Both the position numbers and the translations under genes were made by a program. 22,026 nucleotides of DNA from a virus. Location of the stretch: the IMG/VR virus record IMGVR_UViG_3300031707_000204, positions 1 to 22,026 of that record; one strand, given 5' to 3'. The notes beneath the pieces are model-generated. The model did not search any database and had not been told where the DNA came from. It saw only the letters and a program-made list of their open reading frames with translations. Positions within the stretch are counted from its first letter, which is position 1, and each line of letters starts with the position of its first letter. Below are positions 967 to 22,026 of the stretch, one piece after another.

Positions 967-1269
967 ATGGCTAAAAAACCAATTATAAAAGAAAAAATAG
1001 AAAAGAATGAACTTATTCGTTTAATTGCTCAAGATTCGGATTTAAGTATGAAAGTTGTCCGAATAGTTTTAAATTCTACCATAGATACAATTGGAAGAAT
1101 TTTAGAAAATGATAATTCATTAGAAATACAAGGATTTGGAATATTTTACATAACTGATCTTCCAGAACAGGATGCTTATGATCCTGTTAGAAAAATAAGA
1201 TATACAAGACCAGCAACTAAAATGATAAATTTTAAACCTGGAAAAAACTTAAAAAAAATAATCAAATAA
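967..1269 (+). CDS. HU/IHF-family histone-like DNA-binding protein
   Basis: At 100 residues it is slightly longer than typical HU (about 90). The helical N-terminal dimerisation part (about 10-50) is followed by the hallmark GFGIF turn (56-60), a basic beta-arm (about 62-83, with Pro73 in DPVRK where HU carries its DNA-intercalating proline) and a C-terminal FKPGK (89-93). HU proteins bend and coat double-stranded DNA as dimers. Phage versions such as SPO1 TF1 act in phage DNA compaction and transcription. The upstream SD is poor: AAAGG at 944-948 is about 18 bases from the ATG. A stop in the same frame at 949-951 limits how far upstream the start could lie, so translation may be weak or rely on another site. 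Family assignment is strong; role within this phage is inferred. Confidence 0.88.
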   Translation: MAKKPIIKEKIEKNELIRLIAQDSDLSMKVVRIVLNSTIDTIGRILENDNSLEIQGFGIFYITDLPEQDAYDPVRKIRYTRPATKMINFKPGKNLKKIIK

Positions 1270-6730: not shown

Positions 6731-7549
6731 TTGAATAAAATTTCTGGAATATATAAAATATTAAATAATATAACAAATGATGTTTATATCGGACAAAGTA
6801 AAAATTTAAATCAAAGAGAAAAAATACATTTTTCTGTTCTTAAAAGAAGAAAACACGAAAATCCATATCTTCAAAATGCCTTTGATAAATATGGAGAAAA
6901 GAATTTTATTTTTGAAATTATTCAAGAATTGGAAAACGATCAAGAACAATTGAACTTGATGGAAATTTATTGGATTGCTTATTATAATTCTTTTAAGGAC
7001 GATGGAGGAGGATATAATTTAACTAGAGGCGGAGATTGTATTATTTTATCCGAAGATACTAAAAAACGTATGTCAATTTCTAAAAAGGGGATAATACCTT
7101 GGAATACAGGTTTAAAAACTTCAGAAAGCACTAAAAGAAAACAATCTTTGGCTACTAAAGGAGTTCCAAAATCTGAAGAAACTCGAAAAAAAATGTCAAT
7201 AGCACAAACTGGAAGAAAATATTCCGAAGAACAAAATAAAAGAAATTCAGAAAGACAAAAGGGTGAAAAACATTGGAATTTTGGCGGTCATCATTCAGAA
7301 GAAACCAAGAACAAAATTGGCGAAGGCAATAAAGGAAAAATTATATCCGAAGAATCTAAACAAAAGATTTCTATTGCTAATTCTGGAAAATATCCTTCTG
7401 AAGAGACAAAACAAAAGATGTCTGAATCACAGACTGGAAGAACACATTCCGAAGAGACAAAACAGAAAATGTCCGAATCTGGTAAAAAAGCATGGGCAAA
7501 ACGCAAACAAGAACAACAAGAAAACGATTTAACCGAGAAGGGAGAATAA
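6731..7549 (+). CDS. Freestanding GIY-YIG homing endonuclease with NUMOD3 repeats
   Basis: The start is TTG 6731 with AAGGAG at 6720-6725; the protein has 272 residues. The N-terminal nuclease (about 1-97) shows GIY (6-8) and YIG (19-21). Other residues match the I-TevI active site: Y8, Y19, R29, H33, H42, E78 and N96. From about residue 105 to 255 there are repeated SEETKxKMSxSxxG-type units, the NUMOD3 DNA-binding motif of mobile endonucleases. The enzyme nicks or cuts double-stranded DNA at a target, often in a related phage lacking the gene, so that its own gene is copied in. It is not inside an intron visible here: the genes on both sides are complete. Its last codons (E-K-G-E) contain the SD of the next gene, whose ATG is only four bases past this stop. 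Confidence 0.92.
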   Translation: MNKISGIYKILNNITNDVYIGQSKNLNQREKIHFSVLKRRKHENPYLQNAFDKYGEKNFIFEIIQELENDQEQLNLMEIYWIAYYNSFKDDGGGYNLTRGGDCIILSEDTKKRMSISKKGIIPWNTGLKTSESTKRKQSLATKGVPKSEETRKKMSIAQTGRKYSEEQNKRNSERQKGEKHWNFGGHHSEETKNKIGEGNKGKIISEESKQKISIANSGKYPSEETKQKMSESQTGRTHSEETKQKMSESGKKAWAKRKQEQQENDLTEKGE

Positions 7550-12242: not shown

Positions 12243-13255
12243 TGTCAGATATAATTATTCCCAAAAGAGGAAATAGGGCAGGAATAAAAGATGGTAAACG
12301 TGTTGCAAGAGTTAAAGATGTGCCTATCCCTGCCAAACTAAGCAATGTAAAAGTTATTTATTGTAGAAAATGCATGAAGAAATCAGCAGCAAAGAATTTT
12401 TATGAAGCTACAGATATTTTTCTTGACAGCAATGGTAAAATGAGCATATGTAAATACTGCATAGAAGATATGTATCAAAGATTTATGCTTTCTGAAGGTT
12501 CTATAGATAGAGCAATTTTAAAACTTTGTAAAGTTCTAAATGTAAAATTTGATGGAAATGCTTTAGAAACAACAATGGGATTTATCGAAAGGTTAGAAAG
12601 TAAAGGAAAAATTACCGAATCGACTTTTGGGATATATCGAAGAAGTATAAAAGATGGTGGAAAAAATGCTTTAGGTAATCCTATAGATTCTACTTATGTT
12701 GAAACAGCACGATATTTACCCGATGATAGTTTGGTAGATTATGAACAAACTGATTTAGATTATTTAGCTAAATTTTGGGGTACTAATTTTACTGCTGAAG
12801 ATTATGAATTTTTGGAAGAGATTTTTTCTGAATGGAAAAAAACTCATAAATGTGATACTAGAGCAGAAGAAACTTTGTTGAAAGAAATTTGTCATGTAGA
12901 ATTAAAGATTAGAAAAGCAAGAATAGAAGATAAATCAACAGCGTCGTTAGTAAAAGAATTACAAGATTTGATGAAAACTGCTAATGTTGATCCTGCTAAA
13001 GCTGCTATTGCGGGAGCGGGGAAAAGTCAAGATACGTTTTCTTCGTTTATAAAAACAATAGAAGAAAATGAACCTGCTGATTTTTATAAAGATAAAGATT
13101 TATTTAAAGATTTTTTTAATATTGATTGGTATTTCAAAAAATATATAACTCGTCCTCTCAAAAATTTTCTTTTACAATCGAGAGACTTTAATGTTGAAAC
13201 GGAAGATGACGAAGATGAGTTTGATATTTCTGAAGTAAATGAGGAAGAATTATAA
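12242..13255 (+). CDS. terS: Putative terminase small subunit with N-terminal zinc finger
   Basis: The 337-residue protein begins in a one-base overlap (TAATG) with the exonuclease and ends in another with the large terminase. An N-terminal four-cysteine finger (C41-x2-C44, C70-x2-C73) would bind DNA or RNA. A central part (about 170-250) is helical, with DLDYLAKFW, FTAEDYEFLEEIF and ETLLKEICHVELKIRKA. The C-terminus is very acidic (EDDEDEFDISEVNEEEL), which may contact the large subunit. The small subunit recognises the packaging start on phage DNA and regulates the motor. The call rests mainly on position and helical layout, since small terminases are poorly conserved. It is longer than most. 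Confidence 0.65.
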   Translation: MSDIIIPKRGNRAGIKDGKRVARVKDVPIPAKLSNVKVIYCRKCMKKSAAKNFYEATDIFLDSNGKMSICKYCIEDMYQRFMLSEGSIDRAILKLCKVLNVKFDGNALETTMGFIERLESKGKITESTFGIYRRSIKDGGKNALGNPIDSTYVETARYLPDDSLVDYEQTDLDYLAKFWGTNFTAEDYEFLEEIFSEWKKTHKCDTRAEETLLKEICHVELKIRKARIEDKSTASLVKELQDLMKTANVDPAKAAIAGAGKSQDTFSSFIKTIEENEPADFYKDKDLFKDFFNIDWYFKKYITRPLKNFLLQSRDFNVETEDDEDEFDISEVNEEEL

Positions 13256-15087
13256 TGCCGGGAAGCGCACGACCATACCAAAACGATTTAAGAAAATATG
13301 CAAAAACGGGAGATATATTTAGAACTTCTAAAGATATGATTCGCCATAGGGAAATGGATTTTCAAAGAACTAAAAGATATAAAGCGTGGATCACCTTTTT
13401 CAGAAGAAATCCGGTAGCCCTAATTGAAACTTACTTTGGTATTCATTTACATCCTTTTCAAATATTAATGATTTGGGTTTTACAACGTAGTAATTTAGCG
13501 TATATAGTTGCAGCAAGAGCAGCAAGCAAAACTTGGATTATTGCAGTTTGGGCATTGACATTAGCTGTTTTATATCCTGGTATAAAGATTGTTGTTTGCG
13601 CTAAAACAATAAAACAAGGCGGTATTTTATTAAGTGAAAAGCTAACTGCTTTGCGAGATACTTATCCTAATGTAGCCAGAGAAATAAAGCAAATTGTAAT
13701 GAATTCTAATGATCAAATAGCTTTGTTTCATTGCGGAAGTAGTATAAAAGTTGTACCATCAACTGATAGTGCGAGAGGCAACAGGGCCAATTATATTATT
13801 ATCGAAGAAGCCCGATTAGTTCCGAAAGAAATTCTTGAATCGGTAATTAAACCTTTTTTGGAAGTTAGAAATCCTCCTTATCGTTTAAAACCAGAATATG
13901 CAAATGATTCTTTATTGAAGGAAGAAGGAACAATATCTTATATTACTTCAGCTTGGTATACGGCAGAATATTGGTATGAATATGTAAAGACTTGTATAAA
14001 AAGAATGGTCAGAGGAGATGAAACTGCTAATTTCTTAGCATTTGATTATTTGATTACGATTTTCCATAATATTAAGACAGAAGAAATGATTAAGAATGAA
14101 ATGTCTGATATGGATGCTGTTTCTGTACAAATGGAATATTATAATATTCCTTCTGGCGCAAGTGGCAAATCTTATTTTAAACCCATTTTGTTTCCAAGAA
14201 ATATTAAAAAAGCTTGGTATCCTCAAAAAGAAGATACTTATAATGCAAAACATAATCCTTATGATATAAAAAAGGTTGATGGAGAAATAAGAATTATTTC
14301 GGTTGATGTCGCTGCCAGAGCAAATAGAGTAAACGATCAAACTATTATATCTCCAATCAGAATGATTCCTCTTTTAGGTAAAGGATATAATCGTCAACTG
14401 TCTTATATGGAATCTCATAAAGGTTCTAATACTTTAACACAGGCTAAAAGAATTAAAGAAATATTTTTTGATCTTGATGCTAATTATTTAGTACTTGACT
14501 TACAAAATATCGGAATCGGAATTTTTGACGCATTAAGTCAAGTTACAATGGATGATGAAAGAGGAATAACTTTTCCTGCTATGACAGTAGTGGGAGGAGA
14601 ATTTGAAATTGTTGAACAAAAATTACGAGACGAATTGAGAAATAGAACTTTAGGAGTTGGGGCAATTCCAGTAATATTTCCTATTTTAGCTAGTCAAAAT
14701 TTAAATAGTCAAATTGCAGTTGCTTTTAGATCATCTTTACAAAAGAAAATGTGGAATTTTCTTAATGATGATGGGAGTGCCGAGGACTATTTAATAAAAT
14801 CTAATAAGGAATTTACTTCAAATCCAAATGATTCTTCTTTATTTTCATTTTTTCTCAATCCTTTTGTGCAAACAGGATTATTTATTTCGGAATGTATTAA
14901 TCTTGATATGAGTTTGGTAAATGGATTAATTAAATTAACTGAAAAACCAGGATGTTATAAAGATAGATATAGTTCTGTAAGTTATGCTAATTGGATAATA
15001 CATAATGCTTTTGATCCCTCATTATTAAAGGAAAATGTTGAAGATGATGAATGGTCTATAATAAGTGGATTGACAATGTTTGTCTAA
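13255..15087 (+). CDS. terL: Terminase large subunit (ATPase-nuclease packaging motor)
   Basis: The 610-residue protein has both terminase domains. The N-terminal ATPase shows a Walker A-like loop AARAASKT (86-93), a Walker B YIIIEEA (180-186, Glu184-Glu185) and a coupling TSA motif (231-233). The C-terminal RNase H-fold nuclease has three acidic sites: D351 (SVDVA), D415 (LVLDLQN) and D570 (YKDRYSS). It threads concatemeric DNA into the prohead through the portal using ATP and cuts it at the end. Size matches the family. Walker A lacks the classical Gly before Lys (Ser91 instead) and Walker B has Glu for Asp. Such variants occur in phage terminases, so I regard it as active. It starts in a one-base overlap with the small subunit. 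Confidence 0.92.
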   Translation: MPGSARPYQNDLRKYAKTGDIFRTSKDMIRHREMDFQRTKRYKAWITFFRRNPVALIETYFGIHLHPFQILMIWVLQRSNLAYIVAARAASKTWIIAVWALTLAVLYPGIKIVVCAKTIKQGGILLSEKLTALRDTYPNVAREIKQIVMNSNDQIALFHCGSSIKVVPSTDSARGNRANYIIIEEARLVPKEILESVIKPFLEVRNPPYRLKPEYANDSLLKEEGTISYITSAWYTAEYWYEYVKTCIKRMVRGDETANFLAFDYLITIFHNIKTEEMIKNEMSDMDAVSVQMEYYNIPSGASGKSYFKPILFPRNIKKAWYPQKEDTYNAKHNPYDIKKVDGEIRIISVDVAARANRVNDQTIISPIRMIPLLGKGYNRQLSYMESHKGSNTLTQAKRIKEIFFDLDANYLVLDLQNIGIGIFDALSQVTMDDERGITFPAMTVVGGEFEIVEQKLRDELRNRTLGVGAIPVIFPILASQNLNSQIAVAFRSSLQKKMWNFLNDDGSAEDYLIKSNKEFTSNPNDSSLFSFFLNPFVQTGLFISECINLDMSLVNGLIKLTEKPGCYKDRYSSVSYANWIIHNAFDPSLLKENVEDDEWSIISGLTMFV

Positions 15088-15205: not shown

Positions 15206-16348
15206 ATGACAAGAGGTATAAAACATAATTATAAAGAAATTAAAGATTATATAGAGCAATTTGGATGTAAACTTATAAGTACTGAATATAAAAGTATGGA
15301 TGATAAATTAACAATAGAATGTGTTTGTTTAAATAAGTGGGAAACTACTTTTTATAGTTTTAAAAATACTTGTCATCATCGATGCCATGATTGTTCTAAT
15401 ACACAAAGACTTACGTTTGAAACTGTAAAATCTATTATTGAAAATTTTGGATATTATTTATTAAGCATAGAATATAAGAACAGTATTACTCCGTTAATAA
15501 TAAAAGATAATGATAATTATTTATATTATATTTCTTTTAGTGATATTTTTACTGAATTTAAAAGAGGGGCTAAACCTCATGTATTTGTTCCTTCTAATAT
15601 TTTTGTTATAGAAAATATAAAATTATGGATTAAATTAAATAATAAACCATTTGAACTTATAAGTCAAAAATATATAAATAAAAACGATAAAATAGATTTT
15701 TATTGTTGTAAATGTAAAAATGTATTTGATGTATCATTAAATAATTTAAGATGGCATCAAAAAGGATGCCCATATTGTGTCGGTAAAAGGGTTTCCATTA
15801 AAAATAGTTTATATGAAAATTTTAAAGAATTGTCTTTAGAGTGGGATTATTTAATTAATAAAGGAAATCCAAAAGATTATAGTTATGGTTCTCATTATAA
15901 GGCTGGATGGATTTGCCCTGATTGTGAATATAAATGGTTTGCTAGTATACACGATAGAACTAATAATAAATCGGGTTGCCCTTGCTGTAGAAAATCTAAA
16001 GGAGAATTAATTATACATAAAAAATTAACTTCTTTAGAATTGTATTTTATTTCTCAATATAGATTTATTGATTGTAAAAATGAAAGATCATTACCTTTCG
16101 ATTTTTATTTGCCGATTCAAAATGTATGTATTGAATATCAAGGCAGACAACATTATGAATCTGTAAATGCGTGGGGCGGCGTAAAAGAATATGATAAAAT
16201 TAAATTAAACGATTCTATAAAAAAAGAATACTGCAAAAAAAATAATATAAAATTTTTATCTATTTCTTATTTAGATTTTAAAAATATTGAAAAAATTCTT
16301 GAAGATGCCCTAAATCTTCGAGGAAGGGAGATTTATGGCACGAACTAA
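15206..16348 (+). CDS. Freestanding homing endonuclease: zinc-ribbon modules plus Vsr-like EDxHD nuclease
   Basis: ATG 15206 has SD AAAGGAAGG (15192-15200); 380 residues. Repeated small modules fill the first two thirds: about 8-65 (cysteines 39, 41, 60, 63), a degenerate copy at 71-127, about 138-192 (C167, C168, C170, C188, C191), and a DUF4379-like zinc ribbon at 200-262 (LEWDYLINKGNP, WICPDC, GCPCC). The C-terminal domain resembles Vsr-type nucleases of the EDxHD family described for I-Bth0305I: E267 (KGEL), D299 (FDFYLP), E310 and H316 (EYQGRQHY), and D330 or D336. Such enzymes cut conserved phage genes and spread their own coding sequence. It sits between terL and portal, and its final codons overlap the portal SD and first five codons. 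It is AT-richer than its neighbours, consistent with transfer. Confidence 0.85.
   Translation: MTRGIKHNYKEIKDYIEQFGCKLISTEYKSMDDKLTIECVCLNKWETTFYSFKNTCHHRCHDCSNTQRLTFETVKSIIENFGYYLLSIEYKNSITPLIIKDNDNYLYYISFSDIFTEFKRGAKPHVFVPSNIFVIENIKLWIKLNNKPFELISQKYINKNDKIDFYCCKCKNVFDVSLNNLRWHQKGCPYCVGKRVSIKNSLYENFKELSLEWDYLINKGNPKDYSYGSHYKAGWICPDCEYKWFASIHDRTNNKSGCPCCRKSKGELIIHKKLTSLELYFISQYRFIDCKNERSLPFDFYLPIQNVCIEYQGRQHYESVNAWGGVKEYDKIKLNDSIKKEYCKKNNIKFLSISYLDFKNIEKILEDALNLRGREIYGTN
16311..16335 (+). promoter_or_regulatory. Hairpin presenting the portal gene SD in its loop
   Basis: TAAATCT (16311-16317) pairs with AGATTTA (16329-16335). The 11-base loop holds GAGGAAGGG, the portal SD, and the stem ends in the A of the portal ATG. 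All of it is also endonuclease coding sequence, so translation of that gene would melt the hairpin. Confidence 0.4.
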
Positions 16349-17933
16349 AAAAATAAAAGAATCATCGGAAATATTGTTGTCGGAATCTGATGTTTGGAGC
16401 ATAGTTGAGTTTGCTAGAGGAATGAGTGGGGCGTATAATGGAATAACAACGCCTGACCTCATTAGCAGTCGTCTTAAAGAACTTACTTTGAACCCGTTAG
16501 CTCCAACAGAAGATACTTTAAATAAAGCCCTTGCTAACCCGCGTGAAAATGAAACTCTTTTACAAGAATTTAGCCAATCTTTTGAGTTGCAAAGCCAGCC
16601 CTTTAAGAGGCTCCTCAGCTTTTTAGGGGGATTCCTTTCTTGGGACATGTCATATACATGTATTAATGCGACATATAAAGATTATTCTTCAAAAAAATAT
16701 CAAGATGATTTAAAAATTGTTTTTAGTTTTCTTGATAAATTTGATTATAAAAAAGAATTTGCTGTTGTAGTCAGAGAACTTTTACGCAATGAAGCATATT
16801 TTTGTGCTTCTAGATTTGAGGGAACTAAATATGTATTACAAGAACTTCCCGCTTCGCCTGTTTTTACAAAAATAACGGGCAGATTCGATTTCGGACTTCT
16901 TTTTAGCATGAACTTATATTGGCTGATTCTTCCCGGCATTGATTTGGACATGTATCCAAAATTCTTCCAACAAAAATATAAGGAATTATGGGAAGGAGGA
17001 GGACAAACAGGATTAAGATTATATGATCCTTCTTTACCTCCTGAACTTAGAGGACAGTCTTCGTGGGTACTTTGGCAAGATATCCCAATTGACGTAGGAT
17101 GGTGCTTTAAATTAAATCCAGAAATAGCAACTAGAGTTCCATATTTTAGTCCATTGTTTAATGATTTAATTTTGCAAGCATTAATGAGAAATTTGCAGAA
17201 AAATATCAATATGGCTACAGCAAATCGTTTACTAGTTGGGCAAATTGGTATATTAAAAGACAGTACTGTAAAGCAAAAAGACCAATTCAATATTTCACCG
17301 GCTCTTTTGGGCAACTTCTTAGCATTATTAAAAAGCGGATTTTCAGAAGCAATTAAGGTTGGGGCAGCACCTCTTGAAAACATGCAACAAATTGCTTTTC
17401 AAGCCGAAAACGATGTCTATGACTCGTACTTAAAAACTACATTGGCTTCTAGTGGTGTTAATACAAACTTAATTTTTACAAGTAATATGCGCCCTAATAT
17501 TATGGAAACTCAATTAAGTTTGAATACAGACGAACAACTTATGATGGCTTTATATCCTCAATTCAATGCTTTCTTAGAATATCAAATAAATAAATTAACA
17601 AAATTCTATAAATTTAAGTTCGAATTCGAAGGCTCCTCGTTTTTTAATAATCGTCAACAAAGATTTGAAAAAGCAATGATTTTACTTGATAAAGGAATAG
17701 TATTGCCTCAGAAAGTAGCCGCTGCTATGGGGATGTCGCCTATGGACTTCCAACGACAACTTGACGAAGCTAGGGCTACAGGATTTGTAGATAATCTTAC
17801 GCCTATAATTTCTGCCTTCCAACAATCGCCTAGTGCTGGTCGTCCTCCAAAAGAGGAAAGTGATTTGGGGGATTCGGGCGAACAAACAAAAGGAAGTGGT
17901 GCAAATATAGGTCGCGGGGGAAAAAATAAATAA
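16335..17933 (+). CDS. Portal protein
   Basis: The 532-residue protein follows the large terminase gene and has portal-type length and composition. It has a helical N-terminus, a mixed alpha/beta middle with aromatic-rich segments (SMNLYWLILPGIDLDMYP), a long stem/crown helix region (about 290-420), and a Gly/Ser/Lys-rich flexible tail from about 495. Twelve copies form the ring at one head vertex through which DNA passes and on which terminase docks. Identification rests on gene order and overall pattern, as portals share little sequence. The SD is GAGGAAGGGAG (16320-16330), lying in the end of the endonuclease gene. Confidence 0.8.
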   Translation: MARTKKIKESSEILLSESDVWSIVEFARGMSGAYNGITTPDLISSRLKELTLNPLAPTEDTLNKALANPRENETLLQEFSQSFELQSQPFKRLLSFLGGFLSWDMSYTCINATYKDYSSKKYQDDLKIVFSFLDKFDYKKEFAVVVRELLRNEAYFCASRFEGTKYVLQELPASPVFTKITGRFDFGLLFSMNLYWLILPGIDLDMYPKFFQQKYKELWEGGGQTGLRLYDPSLPPELRGQSSWVLWQDIPIDVGWCFKLNPEIATRVPYFSPLFNDLILQALMRNLQKNINMATANRLLVGQIGILKDSTVKQKDQFNISPALLGNFLALLKSGFSEAIKVGAAPLENMQQIAFQAENDVYDSYLKTTLASSGVNTNLIFTSNMRPNIMETQLSLNTDEQLMMALYPQFNAFLEYQINKLTKFYKFKFEFEGSSFFNNRQQRFEKAMILLDKGIVLPQKVAAAMGMSPMDFQRQLDEARATGFVDNLTPIISAFQQSPSAGRPPKEESDLGDSGEQTKGSGANIGRGGKNK

Positions 17934-18049: not shown

Positions 18050-18406
18050 ATGGCTCAAAGAATTACTGCTTCACAAGCAACTAAAATAAATAGAATGAAT
18101 CGTGCGGCACAAGATGTTGCATTGGGTACTATTATTAGACAGATGGGAAATATTGCTACAGGTAGTCATACCGTTACTGGCGCACAGCAAAATGCTAGTG
18201 CTATCGTTATTGATACTACTTTAGGTTCTTCGACTGGACAAATTGTTCAACTTTATCGTGGTGGTTCTCCGATTTTTACTAGCGCCAGCGCATTCAGAGT
18301 TGTAAATAGTGCTGGAAGTATTACTATTACAGGTAGTTATACTGGTGTAAGTGGGCTATTGATTTCTGCAAGCGATATTGTAAATTGGATTGCTTTCAAA
18401 GCTTAA
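18050..18406 (+). CDS. Small head-region structural protein, helix then beta-rich
   Basis: The 118-residue product has SD AGGAGG (18039-18044). Residues 1-35 are polar helix (ITASQATKINRMNRAAQDVALG). The rest is Gly/Ser/Thr-rich beta sequence (ATGSHTVTGAQQNAS, TGSYTGVSG), ending DIVNWIAFKA. No catalytic motif or membrane segment is present. Placement between portal and the capsid protease suggests a capsid or head-fibre component, with the helix as an attachment and the beta part as an exposed domain. I do not recognise the family. Confidence 0.55.
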   Translation: MAQRITASQATKINRMNRAAQDVALGTIIRQMGNIATGSHTVTGAQQNASAIVIDTTLGSSTGQIVQLYRGGSPIFTSASAFRVVNSAGSITITGSYTGVSGLLISASDIVNWIAFKA

Positions 18407-18435
18407 ATAGATTGATATGAAAGGAGGTAGTCTAT
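18407..18435 (+). promoter_or_regulatory. Hairpin presenting the ferritin gene SD in its loop
   Basis: ATAGATT (18407-18413) pairs with AGTCTAT (18429-18435), seven pairs with one G-T. The 15-base loop contains AAAGGAGGT, and the ATG follows at 18438. The stem is weak, so any regulation is tentative. Confidence 0.35.
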
Positions 18436-18437
18436 AA

Positions 18438-18914
18438 ATGAGATTATCTTCAGTTTTAAATAGTGCTTTAAATGAACAAATACTTAAAGAATATCACAAT
18501 ATGCTCCTTTATAGGCAAATTGAATCCTACTTTCAAGATTTTCAATTAAAGGGTTTGGCGGGATATTTTGCAAAACAAGCCGAAGAAGAAAAAGGCCACG
18601 CATTAAAATTTACTAATCATATTAATGACCGTACGGGTGGAAAAGTGACATTGGGAGATATTGATGCTCCCAATGTTGCACTATCCGATTTTTCTTCTAT
18701 TGGTGATGAATATGTTAAATCGGAAGAAGGAACTACAGAAAGTATTGAGGCTTTATATTTTCTTGCTTTGAATGAACAAAGTTTTATAGATTTAGGATTT
18801 TTAGAAGAAATGCTTAATGAACAAGTTGAAGAAGAAGACTCTGCTCAGGAATTTTCATTGCGAATTAAAGCAGTAAAGGATATTGTATTATTTGATGCAA
18901 CGTTTGGGGAATAA
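18438..18914 (+). CDS. Phage-encoded ferritin (FtnA-like) with complete ferroxidase centre
   Basis: This 158-residue protein aligns along its whole length with bacterial ferritins (about 165 residues), a four-helix bundle plus a short last helix. Ferroxidase ligands of E. coli FtnA (E17, E50, H53, E94, Q127, E130) correspond to E18, E51, H54, E96, Q129 and E132. The third iron site (E49, E126, E129) corresponds to E50, E128 and E131, and Tyr24 to Y25. Hallmarks are LNEQILKEYHN, AEEEKGHALKF and NEQVEEE. Ferritins oxidise Fe(II) and store Fe(III) in 24-subunit shells. The SD is AAAGGAGGT (18420-18428). The gene is embedded in the head operon, followed two bases later by the next ATG. It may protect virion DNA from iron damage, hold iron for infection, or be a structural part; the phage role is inferred. 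Confidence 0.88.
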   Translation: MRLSSVLNSALNEQILKEYHNMLLYRQIESYFQDFQLKGLAGYFAKQAEEEKGHALKFTNHINDRTGGKVTLGDIDAPNVALSDFSSIGDEYVKSEEGTTESIEALYFLALNEQSFIDLGFLEEMLNEQVEEEDSAQEFSLRIKAVKDIVLFDATFGE

Positions 18915-18916
18915 AA

Positions 18917-19117
18917 ATGTATATAATTAATCCTACCCAAGAACAACTTGATTCTTGGTATAAATGCAAAGAAAAAATTGCTAAATTTTTAATATATAAA
19001 TGTAGTCTCCCATTAGTTGCTAGAAAAGGTGATTATTTTTATTTCGTAAAAACCGAACAATGGAAATTGGCAATAGCAAAATTACCATTATGGGATAAAA
19101 TTGTTGAAAAATTTTGA
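18917..19117 (+). CDS. 66-residue conserved-looking protein of unknown function
   Basis: It starts two bases after the ferritin stop (SD-like GGGGA, 18907-18911), so translation is probably coupled. The product begins MYIINPTQEQLDSWYKCKEKIA, has a short helix, a hydrophobic strand and a second amphipathic helix (EQWKLAIAKLPLWDKIVEKF). It has two cysteines and no motif I can assign. Coupling to ferritin invites a joint role, but the position ahead of the protease gene equally fits a small head-assembly protein. Confidence 0.6.
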   Translation: MYIINPTQEQLDSWYKCKEKIAKFLIYKCSLPLVARKGDYFYFVKTEQWKLAIAKLPLWDKIVEKF

Positions 19118-19156: not shown

Positions 19157-20983
19157 GTGAATAAATTTATAAATTTTGAAGTTGAAAGTACAGAAATCAT
19201 AGAAGAAAATCCAGATTCTCAATTTGCAACTGCCCGAATTCAAGCATTTAGTTCAGATAAAAATAGGCATGATATGTATTGTTCTGAAGATGTTCTTCAA
19301 AAAACCGCTTCAACAATATATGATAAGCCAATTTTATATTCTATTGATCAGGTATTAAATGATTTCTACACTCACACAGAAGCAGGAAAATCATTAATTG
19401 CCGGATTTGTTGTTCCTAATAGTGCCGAATTTATAAGATTGTCGGATTCTAGATTGGCTCTTAGTGTTTTTGCAAAAATATGGAAACGCTATGCGCCCAA
19501 AGTGATAGAGTTGTTCCAAAGAGATTCTTTAAAAAATAAAAAAGTTTCTGTAGAAATGGAACTATTTGATTCCGAAGAAAAAAGCGATGGCCTTATTGAA
19601 ATGAAAGATTTTGCTTATTCTGGAATTACTTTGTTAGGAGATTTTATAACAGAAGCAAGTCCGGGTGCAAACATGCAGATGCTTTCTTTTTCTGAGGCAA
19701 ATGAACAATTTAAAGAAGATTATCAAATTGAATTTGGAAAATATGAAGATGAGATGAGTTTTAATATTCCATCTGAAGTTCAAACTAATGCTAAAAAAGG
19801 TTTAGATTTATATAAGAAATTTGAACGTGGTGGAAATTCTGTATCTGTTGCTCATGCAAAACATTTGACTACAGATAAAAAATCTACTCCTGAAAAAGTT
19901 CGTCATGCCCATAAATATATGGCTAAACGAGGCAGTAATAAATTTGATGAAAAGAATCCAACTAATAATCAAATTACATTTATGCTTTGGGGCGGCGAGG
20001 AATCAATCGATTGGACAAGTTCTTTAATTGAAAAAATGGGTGCTATGGATAGTAGACATACAAGTTATTTTGGCGAAGGAGGTATTATGCCATACGGATC
20101 ATTAAAAGATGTTAATCCGGCCCTAAAAGGAATTGAACCTCCTGTCAGTCTTGGTCAAGCCAATGAAATCGCTAAACAGGCAGATGCAATTGGTTCTGAT
20201 GAAAAAAAGAACGGATGGTCTATAGCCATTTCCCAATTTAAGAAAAATCATAAAGTAGAAGATGGGCATTGGGTTAAAAAGGAGGAAAAAATGGCTGAAG
20301 AAGAAAATAAACCTGAAAAGGAGGAAATGAGTGTGGAAAAAGACGAAAAAGTAGAAGAGGAAAAAATGGCTGAAACTCCAGCAGAAGAAAAAAAGGAAGA
20401 CCCTGAGGAAGAGAAGAAAGAAACTCCTGAGGAAGAAAAGAAAGAAAATATGTCTCTGGATGCTTATCTTGATGTTGCTGCAACCTTAGCTTTTCTTAAG
20501 GATGAAACCGAATCATATAAAGAAGTTGCTGCTGAATTTGCTAAACCAGCAGAAGAAATGAATTATGCAAAATGCATGGGCGCTATGTATGCTTTTATGT
20601 GTAAAATGGATGCTATGTGCAAAATGGCAGAAGATAAGGCAGCCAAAGAAGAAGAAGAGAAAAAGGCTTATATGGCTGAGAATGAGCAACTTAAGAAATT
20701 TAAAGCAGAAGAAGAACAGAAACAATTTAAATTTGCTGTTGATTCAACTCTTAAATCTATTGAGGAAAAAACTCAAATTCCAGCAGATGAGTTAGAATCT
20801 CTTCGTGAGAAATCTAAAGAATTTACTATATATACTCTTGATGCATGGACTAATCTTGCAAAAGCGCGTGGGTTAGATTTTGCTCTCAAGGGAGATAAGA
20901 AAGATGATGGCGTAAAACGCTATGGTTTACCATTTCCGGGTGAAGGACGAAAAGTTTCTAGTTCACCTTGGAGTCGTCAATAA
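19157..20983 (+). CDS. Capsid maturation protease fused to scaffold
   Basis: The start is GTG 19157, 11 bases after GGAGG; 608 residues. Residues about 5-175 look like a prohead protease, with H73 (YTHTEAGKS) and S131 (KKVSVEMEL) as candidate catalytic residues; the 58-residue spacing is near that of T4 gp21 (H85, S140). Residues about 205-290 form a further domain (EVQTNAKKGLDLYKKFERGG, then FMLWGGEESIDW) met in phage head proteins. Residues 311-375 hold LKGIEPPVSLGQANEIAKQA and HKVEDGHWVKK. From 376 there is a Glu/Lys-rich linker, then a coiled-coil scaffold ending in SSSPWSRQ. The scaffold shapes the prohead and the protease then removes it. Protease type and residues are inferred. It precedes the capsid genes. 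Confidence 0.72.
   Translation: MNKFINFEVESTEIIEENPDSQFATARIQAFSSDKNRHDMYCSEDVLQKTASTIYDKPILYSIDQVLNDFYTHTEAGKSLIAGFVVPNSAEFIRLSDSRLALSVFAKIWKRYAPKVIELFQRDSLKNKKVSVEMELFDSEEKSDGLIEMKDFAYSGITLLGDFITEASPGANMQMLSFSEANEQFKEDYQIEFGKYEDEMSFNIPSEVQTNAKKGLDLYKKFERGGNSVSVAHAKHLTTDKKSTPEKVRHAHKYMAKRGSNKFDEKNPTNNQITFMLWGGEESIDWTSSLIEKMGAMDSRHTSYFGEGGIMPYGSLKDVNPALKGIEPPVSLGQANEIAKQADAIGSDEKKNGWSIAISQFKKNHKVEDGHWVKKEEKMAEEENKPEKEEMSVEKDEKVEEEKMAETPAEEKKEDPEEEKKETPEEEKKENMSLDAYLDVAATLAFLKDETESYKEVAAEFAKPAEEMNYAKCMGAMYAFMCKMDAMCKMAEDKAAKEEEEKKAYMAENEQLKKFKAEEEQKQFKFAVDSTLKSIEEKTQIPADELESLREKSKEFTIYTLDAWTNLAKARGLDFALKGDKKDDGVKRYGLPFPGEGRKVSSSPWSRQ
20291..20983 (+). CDS. Nested in-frame scaffold protein (alternative start within protease gene)
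   Basis: ATG 20291 is in frame with the fusion gene and is preceded by AAGGAGG (20279-20285) at five bases. It would give a 230-residue protein corresponding to residues 379-608: the acidic linker plus the coiled-coil scaffold, without protease. Lambda C/Nu3 makes protease and scaffold from one gene in this way. A caution is that Lys-Glu-Glu codons naturally spell AAGGAGGAA, and similar strings recur at 20318-20324. Confidence 0.5.
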   Translation: MAEEENKPEKEEMSVEKDEKVEEEKMAETPAEEKKEDPEEEKKETPEEEKKENMSLDAYLDVAATLAFLKDETESYKEVAAEFAKPAEEMNYAKCMGAMYAFMCKMDAMCKMAEDKAAKEEEEKKAYMAENEQLKKFKAEEEQKQFKFAVDSTLKSIEEKTQIPADELESLREKSKEFTIYTLDAWTNLAKARGLDFALKGDKKDDGVKRYGLPFPGEGRKVSSSPWSRQ

Positions 20984-21026: not shown

Positions 21027-21590
21027 ATGGCAGTTCATGGTGTGTTAGTTCCTAATAAAATCATGGCGACTAATGTAGATTCGCTGAATCGAACCGCAGT
21101 AAGTGGTTCTGATATTGATAACGGTATGGTGTTTGCTCTTTACTCTCTTTCAAGTGGTTCTGGAGAGGGCGAAGTTTGGATGACCGAAATGGCTTTGACT
21201 GGTTCATTGGCTGGTGTTTGGATGGCATATAGCCCCGAAGTTGTAAGTATTTTTTCTCCCGATGGGCTAACTGAATACAAAGGCATTAATGCTGATCCTC
21301 GTAACTTTTATGTTAAGGCTGGTCAAATGGTTGATTGCTTTAAGCCTCAGGCAGGAGATATTATTACGATGAGTGTTGAATGCTTTACTGCCGCAAGAAG
21401 TACGAATACCTATGCTACTGTTACAACCGGTTCTAATCAGTTAGTTTGGGCTTCTGGTGGTGTCGGTATTCAGAATGCGGCTGGTGTTTTCAAATATCTA
21501 GCAACGGATTATTTCTCAATTGGTTCGGGTAGTGTAATTGGTTCTACTCAACGACAGACCGCCTACAGAGTACAATGTCTGTTTAACTAG
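21027..21590 (+). CDS. Probable capsid decoration/accessory protein upstream of the major capsid protein
   Basis: The 187-residue product has AGGAGG just upstream (about 21010-21015) and ends in TAG. It is beta-rich: VDSLNRTAVSGSDIDNGMV near the N-terminus, VWMTEMALTGSLAGVWMAYSPEVV, DPRNFYVKAGQMVDCFKPQAGDIITMS and a Gly/Ser-rich final third. No enzyme or membrane motif is present. Placement between scaffold and major capsid protein is the usual site of cement or decoration proteins that stabilise expanded heads. It uses less AT-rich codons than upstream genes, in line with high expression. Another capsid-associated role is possible. Confidence 0.65.
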   Translation: MAVHGVLVPNKIMATNVDSLNRTAVSGSDIDNGMVFALYSLSSGSGEGEVWMTEMALTGSLAGVWMAYSPEVVSIFSPDGLTEYKGINADPRNFYVKAGQMVDCFKPQAGDIITMSVECFTAARSTNTYATVTTGSNQLVWASGGVGIQNAAGVFKYLATDYFSIGSGSVIGSTQRQTAYRVQCLFN

Positions 21591-21631: not shown

Positions 21632-22026
21632 ATGAAAGTTCCTACGAATGTATTGCATTTTGCAGGTGAAAAAAATTTAGCTCCTTATAGCATGTTCTAT
21701 GATTATTACAATCAATATCGTGCTGGTAATGGTGCTAAAGTCGAATTCTCCAAGACTGATGACAAGGGTAATCCGATCAGTTTTGAGGAAAAAGAGGCGT
21801 TGATGAACGCTGCTCTGAAACGAGAAATTCTTCGTGTTTCCAGTATTCAGAATTTTGCAGAGTTTCCTCTTGAGGCGTGGGTTACTAATCCTATGCTTTC
21901 TTGGGCAACTTTTGCTGTTGTAAGTGCAATGATTGATATGATTCTACCCGAATCTATTATCGATACTATTGGTGCTTATGCTGAAGTTCGGACTATTGGT
22001 TGGGGTGATACGGCTGTGTTTGATGT
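21632..22026 (+). CDS. Major capsid protein, N-terminal part (runs off the window)
   Basis: ATG 21632 has AAGGAGG at 21613-21619. An in-frame ATG at 21620 overlaps that SD and is unlikely. The 131 visible residues begin MKVPTNVLHFAGEKNLAPYS. They then show ALMNAALKREILRVSSIQNF, FPLEAWVTNPMLSWATFAVV and MILPESIIDTIGAYAEVRTI, ending GWGDTAVFDV. This layout is that of a HK97-fold-type major capsid protein family whose N-terminal helix leads into strands rich in 'TIG' turns. It follows protease, scaffold and accessory protein, the standard order. The frame is open to the last base, so the C-terminal part is missing here. Confidence 0.78.
   Translation, partial: MKVPTNVLHFAGEKNLAPYSMFYDYYNQYRAGNGAKVEFSKTDDKGNPISFEEKEALMNAALKREILRVSSIQNFAEFPLEAWVTNPMLSWATFAVVSAMIDMILPESIIDTIGAYAEVRTIGWGDTAVFD

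What the first reader, a model, noticed from the sequence alone, without database searches (positions are those of the whole stretch)
18438..18914. A ferritin with an intact ferroxidase centre inside the phage head operon
All six FtnA ferroxidase ligands and the third-site glutamates have counterparts, so the enzyme is probably active. Ferritin is not a normal head gene. Its place between portal and protease, with short spacing on both sides, suggests co-expression with virion assembly. It might load iron into particles, detoxify iron and peroxide during the burst, or form a shell tied to the capsid.
Basis: partly seen in the sequence, partly recalled or inferred. Interest (0 to 1): 0.85.

Follow-up and report, generated by a model that had tools for sequence, protein, structure and literature searches.

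The report
Phage head operon carries a ferritin
A family of mostly uncultured phages carries, among its head-building genes, a ferritin (iron-storage protein) with every iron-oxidising residue kept, and relatives carry in the same place a ferritin-shaped protein that has lost that iron site, so ferritins look like long-standing, swappable companions of phage head assembly rather than a recently stolen host gene.

Summary
Window 18438-18914 (+) encodes a 158-aa non-heme ferritin: Pfam PF00210, 75.5 bits; AlphaFold pLDDT 95.5; structural Z 23 to archaeal ferritin. It is not a chimera or a one-off. Independent viral contigs carry relatives between the portal and the putative protease/capsid genes, nearly always directly before a conserved 66-aa gene. 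All six ferroxidase ligands are invariant in 28 phage ferritins as little as 23% identical to it; the "third-site" glutamates are not. These ferritins form one clade apart from 13 cellular ferritins and are under purifying selection.

New here: related phages, including cultured Enterocloster and Thomasclavelia phages, carry in the same slot a second ferritin-fold family (F2; Z 22) without the ferroxidase motifs. In 44 dereplicated phages the slot holds F1 (21), F2 (11) or neither (12), interleaved on the portal tree. Two relatives keep only the ferritin's ribosome-binding site and start, a deletion scar, so the gene is dispensable.

Best reading: a true, probably active ferritin co-expressed with the head genes, an old swappable accessory of the head module. 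Whether it stays in the cytoplasm or enters the virion is untested. PMBT24's F2 was already annotated "ferritin" without discussion.

The parts
18438..18914 (+). Ferritin (family F1), 158 aa; helices at residues 5-34, 38-63, 85-112, 116-145 and a short fifth helix 149-154
   Evidence: PF00210 75.5 bits; AF2 pLDDT 95.5; Foldseek TM 0.92 to T. maritima/P. furiosus ferritin; Z 23.4 to 1s3q
18489..18833 (+). Span of the ferroxidase ligands E18 (18489-18491), E51 (18588-18590), H54 (18597-18599), E96 (18723-18725), Q129 (18822-18824), E132 (18831-18833)
   Evidence: Alignment to P. furiosus ferritin; invariant in 29/29 aligned sequences, 28 phage and one bacterial
18879..18911 (+). Shortened C-terminal helix E with phage-family motif [hydrophobic]-[FW]-[DN]-x-[ST] (KDIVLFDATFGE)
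   Evidence: 26 residues after E132, against 29-51 in cellular ferritins; DSSP helix 149-154
18420..18428 (+). Shine-Dalgarno-like AAAGGAGGT ahead of the ferritin ATG
   Evidence: Sequence; comparable sites before most F1 genes
16335..17933 (+). Portal protein, upstream anchor of the slot
   Evidence: phrog_2739 portal, E 2.6e-49
18050..18406 (+). 118-aa ORF, variable slot neighbour (labelled decor118); function not established
   Evidence: Profile hits in several relatives; no significant Pfam hit. Small ORFs at this place in L065 and L072 have weak sub-threshold PF11133 head-fibre matches
18917..19117 (+). 66-aa ORF, 2 nt after the ferritin; conserved slot partner, kept in most relatives without ferritin
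19157..20983 (+). Putative prohead protease/scaffold ORF, downstream anchor of the slot
21027..21590 (+). 187-aa conserved head-operon ORF
   Evidence: phrog_4147 (unknown function), E 2.4e-07; syntenic in most relatives
21632..22026 (+). Start of the major capsid protein gene (cut by the window end)
   Evidence: Homologous to PMBT24 'major capsid protein' WDQ45545.1 in the same order
13255..15087 (+). Large terminase subunit
   Evidence: phrog_2 terminase E 3.6e-17

Best explanation
The gene encodes a genuine non-heme ferritin (F1) that is a long-established, exchangeable accessory of this phage group's head gene module. SHOWN: ferritin identity; conserved slot; invariant ferroxidase ligands; one phage clade; purifying selection; replacement by a ferritin-fold protein lacking the ferroxidase motifs (F2), or loss, in relatives. 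INFERRED: it is translated late together with portal, 66-aa, protease and capsid genes, folds into a ferritin cage, and oxidises and stores Fe(II) with O2 or H2O2 while virions are being made, limiting Fenton damage to DNA and head proteins in a host that is probably anaerobic. Because the slot is fixed and F2 lacks the ferroxidase motifs, the ferritin shell probably also does something besides ferroxidase chemistry, perhaps physically tied to head assembly; that part is the least certain.
For: Ferritin identity: Pfam, PDB sequence match, AF2 and Foldseek/VIA. All six ligands plus Y25 invariant in 29/29 aligned sequences although family members fall to 23-25% identity. Slot: a scan with ferritin alone returned 14 loci besides a truncated one (one of them a second copy of contig L003), all with the 66-aa gene directly after the ferritin and head genes alongside. 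Ferritin lies 31 nt after the preceding ORF and 2 nt before the 66-aa ORF with a strong ribosome-binding site; in relatives it starts from -4 to about +40 nt after the portal or a small ORF, or further away where other genes intervene. 27 F1 sequences separate from 13 cellular ferritins with 100/99 support. dN/dS about 0.07 for F1 among L015/L016/L018 (0.12-0.28 in other close pairs) and 0.02-0.035 for F2.
Against: No activity, oligomer, transcript or virion data. 12 of 44 dereplicated relatives have no ferritin in the slot, and L046/L048 carry a deletion scar, so it is not essential. The F1 fifth helix is shortened, so a 24-mer is not assured. Ferritin distances correlate less with portal (r 0.51) than protease (0.81) or capsid (0.86) do with portal, which means swapping or relaxed co-evolution rather than a fixed structural partner. 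Host of the window phage is unknown; the anaerobic host is inferred from F2 phages of gut Clostridia/Erysipelotrichia.
Confidence: 0.5

Rival explanations
1. Virion- or prohead-associated ferritin: the ferritin-fold cage is built into or trapped in the head (scaffold, internal cargo, portal-neck part or decoration), and iron oxidation is optional. F1 would load iron; F2 would be a metal-free structural version.
For: Fixed place between portal and putative protease over portals of about 30% identity; interchange with F2, which keeps the full ferritin fold (Z 22) but lacks the ExxH and helix-D QxxE motifs; F2 dN/dS as low as portal's; phage-specific C-terminal motif. Precedent by literature only: a ferritin-like gp217 (Phyre2) found by mass spectrometry in Vi01-like phage virions (PMC10892097). 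Sequence-unverified hint: weak structural matches of the F1 model to three 'prohead protease' entries of uncultured phages.
Against: F1 ferroxidase ligands are invariant, which a purely structural role would not require; about a quarter of relatives lack any ferritin; no virion proteome of a member is known to me or was found.
Confidence: 0.33
2. Ordinary auxiliary metabolic gene: a host ferritin recently captured and by chance inserted in the head operon.
For: Ferritins and Dps are known as viral accessory genes: Dps/Mn-catalase in gut phages (PMC8008677), Dps in Lactobacillus phages (PMC6669764), ferritin in giant viruses (PMC7136201).
Against: F1 is a separate clade from sampled cellular ferritins (100/99); same slot in many divergent phages; codon-position GC like its neighbours (GC3 0.18, neighbours 0.15-0.30). 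Cellular sampling was small (13).
Confidence: 0.12
3. Assembly chimera or misplaced host fragment.
For: None found.
Against: Independent contigs with the same gene in the same place; a 78% identical contig (L002) runs from TerL/portal into the first 23 ferritin codons, identical in protein.
Confidence: 0.01

Closest known systems
Archaeal/bacterial non-heme ferritins (P. furiosus 2jd6, T. maritima 1vlg, A. fulgidus 1s3q, E. coli FtnA 1eum)
   Same: Four-helix fold plus fifth helix; all six ferroxidase ligands; rmsd 1.2-1.6 A, Z 22-23
   Different: Phage clade of its own; shortened helix E with [FW][DN]x[ST] motif; invariant T99-T100; third site not conserved
Enterocloster phage PMBT24 ORF39 'ferritin' (WDQ45549.1; PMC11035940) and Thomasclavelia phage TR-TP1 gp13 'Ferritin domain-containing protein'
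   Same: Same slot between portal and the phrog_3313 ORF; ferritin fold
   Different: Family F2: no ferroxidase ExxH / QxxE motif pair in helices B and D; full fifth helix. The paper only lists it under 'other functions'
Phage Dps / Mn-catalase stress genes (Gratiaviridae, Lactobacillus and Streptomyces phages)
   Same: Ferritin superfamily, phage-encoded, oxidative stress idea
   Different: Dps family rather than ferritin; F1 is not in these phages. PMC6669764 places its Dps near DNA metabolism genes; the Streptomyces phage hits were not examined for context
Vi01-like phage gp217 (PMC10892097)
   Same: Ferritin-like by Phyre2; detected in virions by mass spectrometry
   Different: Different phage group and genomic context (next to a tail completion gene); its sequence was not compared here
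Encapsulin with encapsulated ferritin
   Same: HK97-fold shell gene near a ferritin-like gene
   Different: Encapsulated ferritins are short two-helix proteins (own knowledge); this is a full classical ferritin in a complete phage head operon

Membership tests
Non-heme ferritin (Ftn, PF00210) | Sequence profile above curated cut-off | tested here: met
   75.5 vs 24.5 bits
Non-heme ferritin (Ftn, PF00210) | Four-helix bundle with long BC loop and fifth helix | tested here: met
   AF2 helices and Z 23; fifth helix short
Non-heme ferritin (Ftn, PF00210) | Intra-subunit ferroxidase centre E, ExxH, E, QxxE | tested here: met
   E18, E51/H54, E96, Q129/E132; invariant in family
Non-heme ferritin (Ftn, PF00210) | 24-mer cage and Fe(II) oxidation/storage | not testable with these tools
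   Only monomer prediction was available
FtnA equivalog (NF007638) | Score above 178 bits | tested here: not met
   41.9 bits: Ftn-type but not the FtnA equivalog
Dps | Dodecamer with ligands between two subunits | not testable with these tools
   Ligands match the intra-subunit ferritin set and best structural matches are classical ferritins; the oligomer was not tested
F2 proteins as ferroxidase-active ferritins | ExxH in helix B and QxxE in helix D | tested here: not met
   No F2 member has a helix-D QxxE; the only ExxH in helix B (L090-L094, residue 43) lacks the rest of the set. Fold itself met: Z 22.1, hhalign to F1 92.8%
Virion structural protein | Present in purified particles | not testable with these tools
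   No proteome available; the paper search found none
Recently acquired auxiliary metabolic gene | Nests among host homologues | tested here: not met
   Separate clade, 100/99, against 13 cellular ferritins (small sample)

The most novel reading that the evidence does not exclude
A ferritin-fold protein is a head-module component in this phage group: the slot next to the portal demands a ferritin cage, filled either by an iron-oxidising version (F1) or a ferroxidase-dead version (F2), so some virions or proheads contain a ferritin cage and F1 phages may carry iron in their heads.
Probability: 0.25. Interest if true: 0.9.

Novelty: new variant of a known kind. Interest (0 to 1): 0.66.

Why it matters
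Phage iron chemistry is mostly discussed through tail-fibre iron and stray stress genes such as Dps. Here a true ferritin is tied to the head genes across divergent phages and trades places with a ferritin-fold relative that has lost the ferroxidase motifs. That makes 'do virions carry or use ferritin?' directly testable in cultured phages (Enterocloster, Thomasclavelia for F2) and gives natural active, dead and deleted versions to compare. It would also bear on how much iron phage lysates release.

Tried and rejected
Chimera hypothesis: rejected by independent contigs. Third-site glutamates as functional evidence: rejected, not conserved. 'Bacteriophage sp.' records MT839617, MT836766, MT838998 and MT838721 as phage ferritins: rejected, no head-gene profile hits and neighbours look bacterial. 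Prophage or host assignment through GTDB genomes: portal and ferritin scans of genome contigs found no relative, so the host remains unknown. F1 in cultured phages: none found at the sensitivities used. A first profile comparison of F1 with five F2 sequences was inconclusive (9%); with ten sequences it reached 92.8%. Promoter/terminator scan: promoter-like sites no more than shuffles, terminator-like 6 against 3.6 (sd 2.1), uninformative. Literature searches for phage or viral ferritin found only giant viruses under those exact phrases. I did not test a 24-mer, metal placement in coordinates, or PHROG_16594's membership.

Full report
WHAT IS THERE. The ORF at 18438-18914 (+) is a 158-aa ferritin: Pfam Ferritin 75.5 bits against a cut-off of 24.5, best solved match P. 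furiosus ferritin at E 8e-21, NCBIfam FtnA far below its equivalog cut-off. In the alignment to P. furiosus ferritin the six ferroxidase ligands are E18, E51, H54, E96, Q129 and E132 (ligand identities in known ferritins are from own knowledge). AlphaFold with 26 phage relatives gives pLDDT 95.5, four long helices and a short fifth. Foldseek and VIA-align match classical ferritins first (TM 0.92; Z 23.4 at 1.2 A over 157 residues). The gene starts 31 nt after a 118-aa ORF, has AAAGGAGGT upstream, and ends 2 nt before a 66-aa ORF.

NOT A ONE-OFF. A viral-contig scan with the ferritin alone found 14 loci beyond a truncated one (one of them a second copy of contig L003), and a portal-based scan 54 loci. 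With iterated profiles, the order portal - (small ORF) - ferritin - 66 aa - phrog_3313 ORF - 187 aa - capsid recurs. In some loci other genes, up to about 7 kb, lie between portal and ferritin, but the ferritin/66-aa pair stays together (L003, L014, L020). In L049 the 66-aa gene is missing. Contig L002, 78% identical in DNA, runs from terminase and portal into the first 23 ferritin codons.

CONSERVED CATALYTIC SITE. In 28 distinct phage ferritins plus one bacterial one, E18, E51, H54, E96, Q129, E132 and Y25 are invariant, T100 too, while E50, E128 and E131 (third site) vary. Identity to the window protein falls to 23-25%. Pairwise dN/dS (NG86) is about 0.07 for L015/L016/L018; other pairs 0.12-0.28, several with saturated dS. 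The 27 F1 sequences used form one side of a branch with 100/99 support against 13 cellular ferritins; that cellular sample is small and came from plasmid records, a few mislabelled contigs and one PDB entry. The tail after E132 is 25-32 residues in F1 (one truncated sequence aside), against 29-51 in full-length cellular proteins, with a phage motif [FW][DN]x[ST].

A SECOND FERRITIN FAMILY IN THE SAME SLOT. Loci that seemed to lack ferritin often carry a 164-174 aa ORF between portal and the 66-aa gene or phrog_3313 ORF. Single members reach PF00210 only weakly (best 9e-5, below cut-off), but the AF2 model (pLDDT 89.2) matches classical ferritins with TM about 0.83 and Z 22.1 at 1.5 A over 164 residues, well above the level noted for unrelated helical bundles. 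Profile comparison with F1 gives 92.8% over 151 columns. None of its members has the F1 pair of motifs, ExxH in helix B and QxxE in helix D, so I read it as ferroxidase-dead; a different metal site from its own conserved residues (N23, D27, R28, H47, H52, D59, D143 in L058) is not excluded. Cultured carriers are Enterocloster bolteae phages (PMBT24, CB457P1-CB473P3) and Thomasclavelia ramosa phages TR-TP1/2. PMBT24 ORF39 is annotated ferritin and listed under 'other functions' without discussion (PMC11035940).

SWAPPED AND LOST. In 44 dereplicated phages (portal under 95% identity) the slot holds F1 in 21, F2 in 11, neither in 12; all three states are interleaved on the portal tree (13 changes against a shuffled mean of 19.5). 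F2 of L045 sits among F1 phages, and L058 (F2) is sister to the L015-L018 F1 group. L041 (F1) and L046/L048 (none) are 81-88% identical on both sides of the gap. L046 keeps AAAAGGAGGTTAAAATATGTTAATAA, the ferritin ribosome-binding site and first codons, then goes straight into the 66-aa gene; L048 keeps a near copy. The simplest reading is deletion of the ferritin. Ferritin distances correlate with portal distances at r 0.51, against 0.81 for the phrog_3313 ORF and 0.86 for capsid (18 loci), as expected of an exchangeable gene.

MECHANISM. Invariant ligands under strong divergence argue that F1 does diiron chemistry. The fixed slot, tight spacing and ribosome-binding sites argue for co-translation with head proteins (inferred; no transcript data). 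My main reading is late iron oxidation and storage in the infected cell, with a likely second, shell-related role suggested by the F1/F2 exchange. The rival is a virion or prohead component. Both remain open; the known F2 hosts are gut anaerobes, the window's host is unknown.

NOVELTY. Phage Dps, Mn-catalase and giant-virus ferritins are known, and F2 ferritins were annotated in two cultured phage groups. I found no paper describing a ferritin as part of a conserved head-gene slot, or the pairing of ligand-intact and ligand-less versions there (searches; open-access library only). I therefore rate it a new variant of a known kind.

Noticed in passing
L046:4640-4690 and L048:1525-1575 against L041:2686-2720: Deletion scar: ferritin ribosome-binding site and first codons retained directly before the 66-aa gene.
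   Followed up: yes
L045, L058, L065, L075, L081, L082, L010, L086, L087, L090-L094: Ferritin-fold family F2 without ferroxidase motifs in the same slot; own conserved residues N23, D27, R28, H47, H52, D59, D143 (L058 numbering) could form something else.
   Followed up: partly
BFVD entries A0A6J7WIS1, A0A6J7XDU5, A0A6J7WPK9: Weak structural matches of the F1 model to 'prohead protease' entries and to 430-760 aa 'Dps' entries of uncultured phages: possible protease-ferritin/Dps fusions.
   Followed up: no
L075:7242-7439: 65-aa ORF at the place of the 66-aa gene weakly matches AdfA, the anti-DarT factor (E 1.5e-4, below cut-off).
   Followed up: no
window 6731-7549 and 15206-16348: Probable homing endonucleases (GIY-YIG/NUMOD3; DUF4379 zinc finger, the latter between terminase and portal).
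   Followed up: no
window 967-1269: HU-type DNA-binding protein (PF00216, E 3e-16).
   Followed up: no
L004, L005, L008, L011, L021, L065, L072-L074 terminase genes: Terminase large subunit genes are split into several ORFs in many relatives, suggesting introns or endonuclease insertions.
   Followed up: no
MT839617.1, MT836766.1, MT838998.1, MT838721.1 (L009, L095-L097): Records labelled 'Bacteriophage sp.' that carry cellular ferritins and no head genes; probably bacterial contigs.
   Followed up: partly
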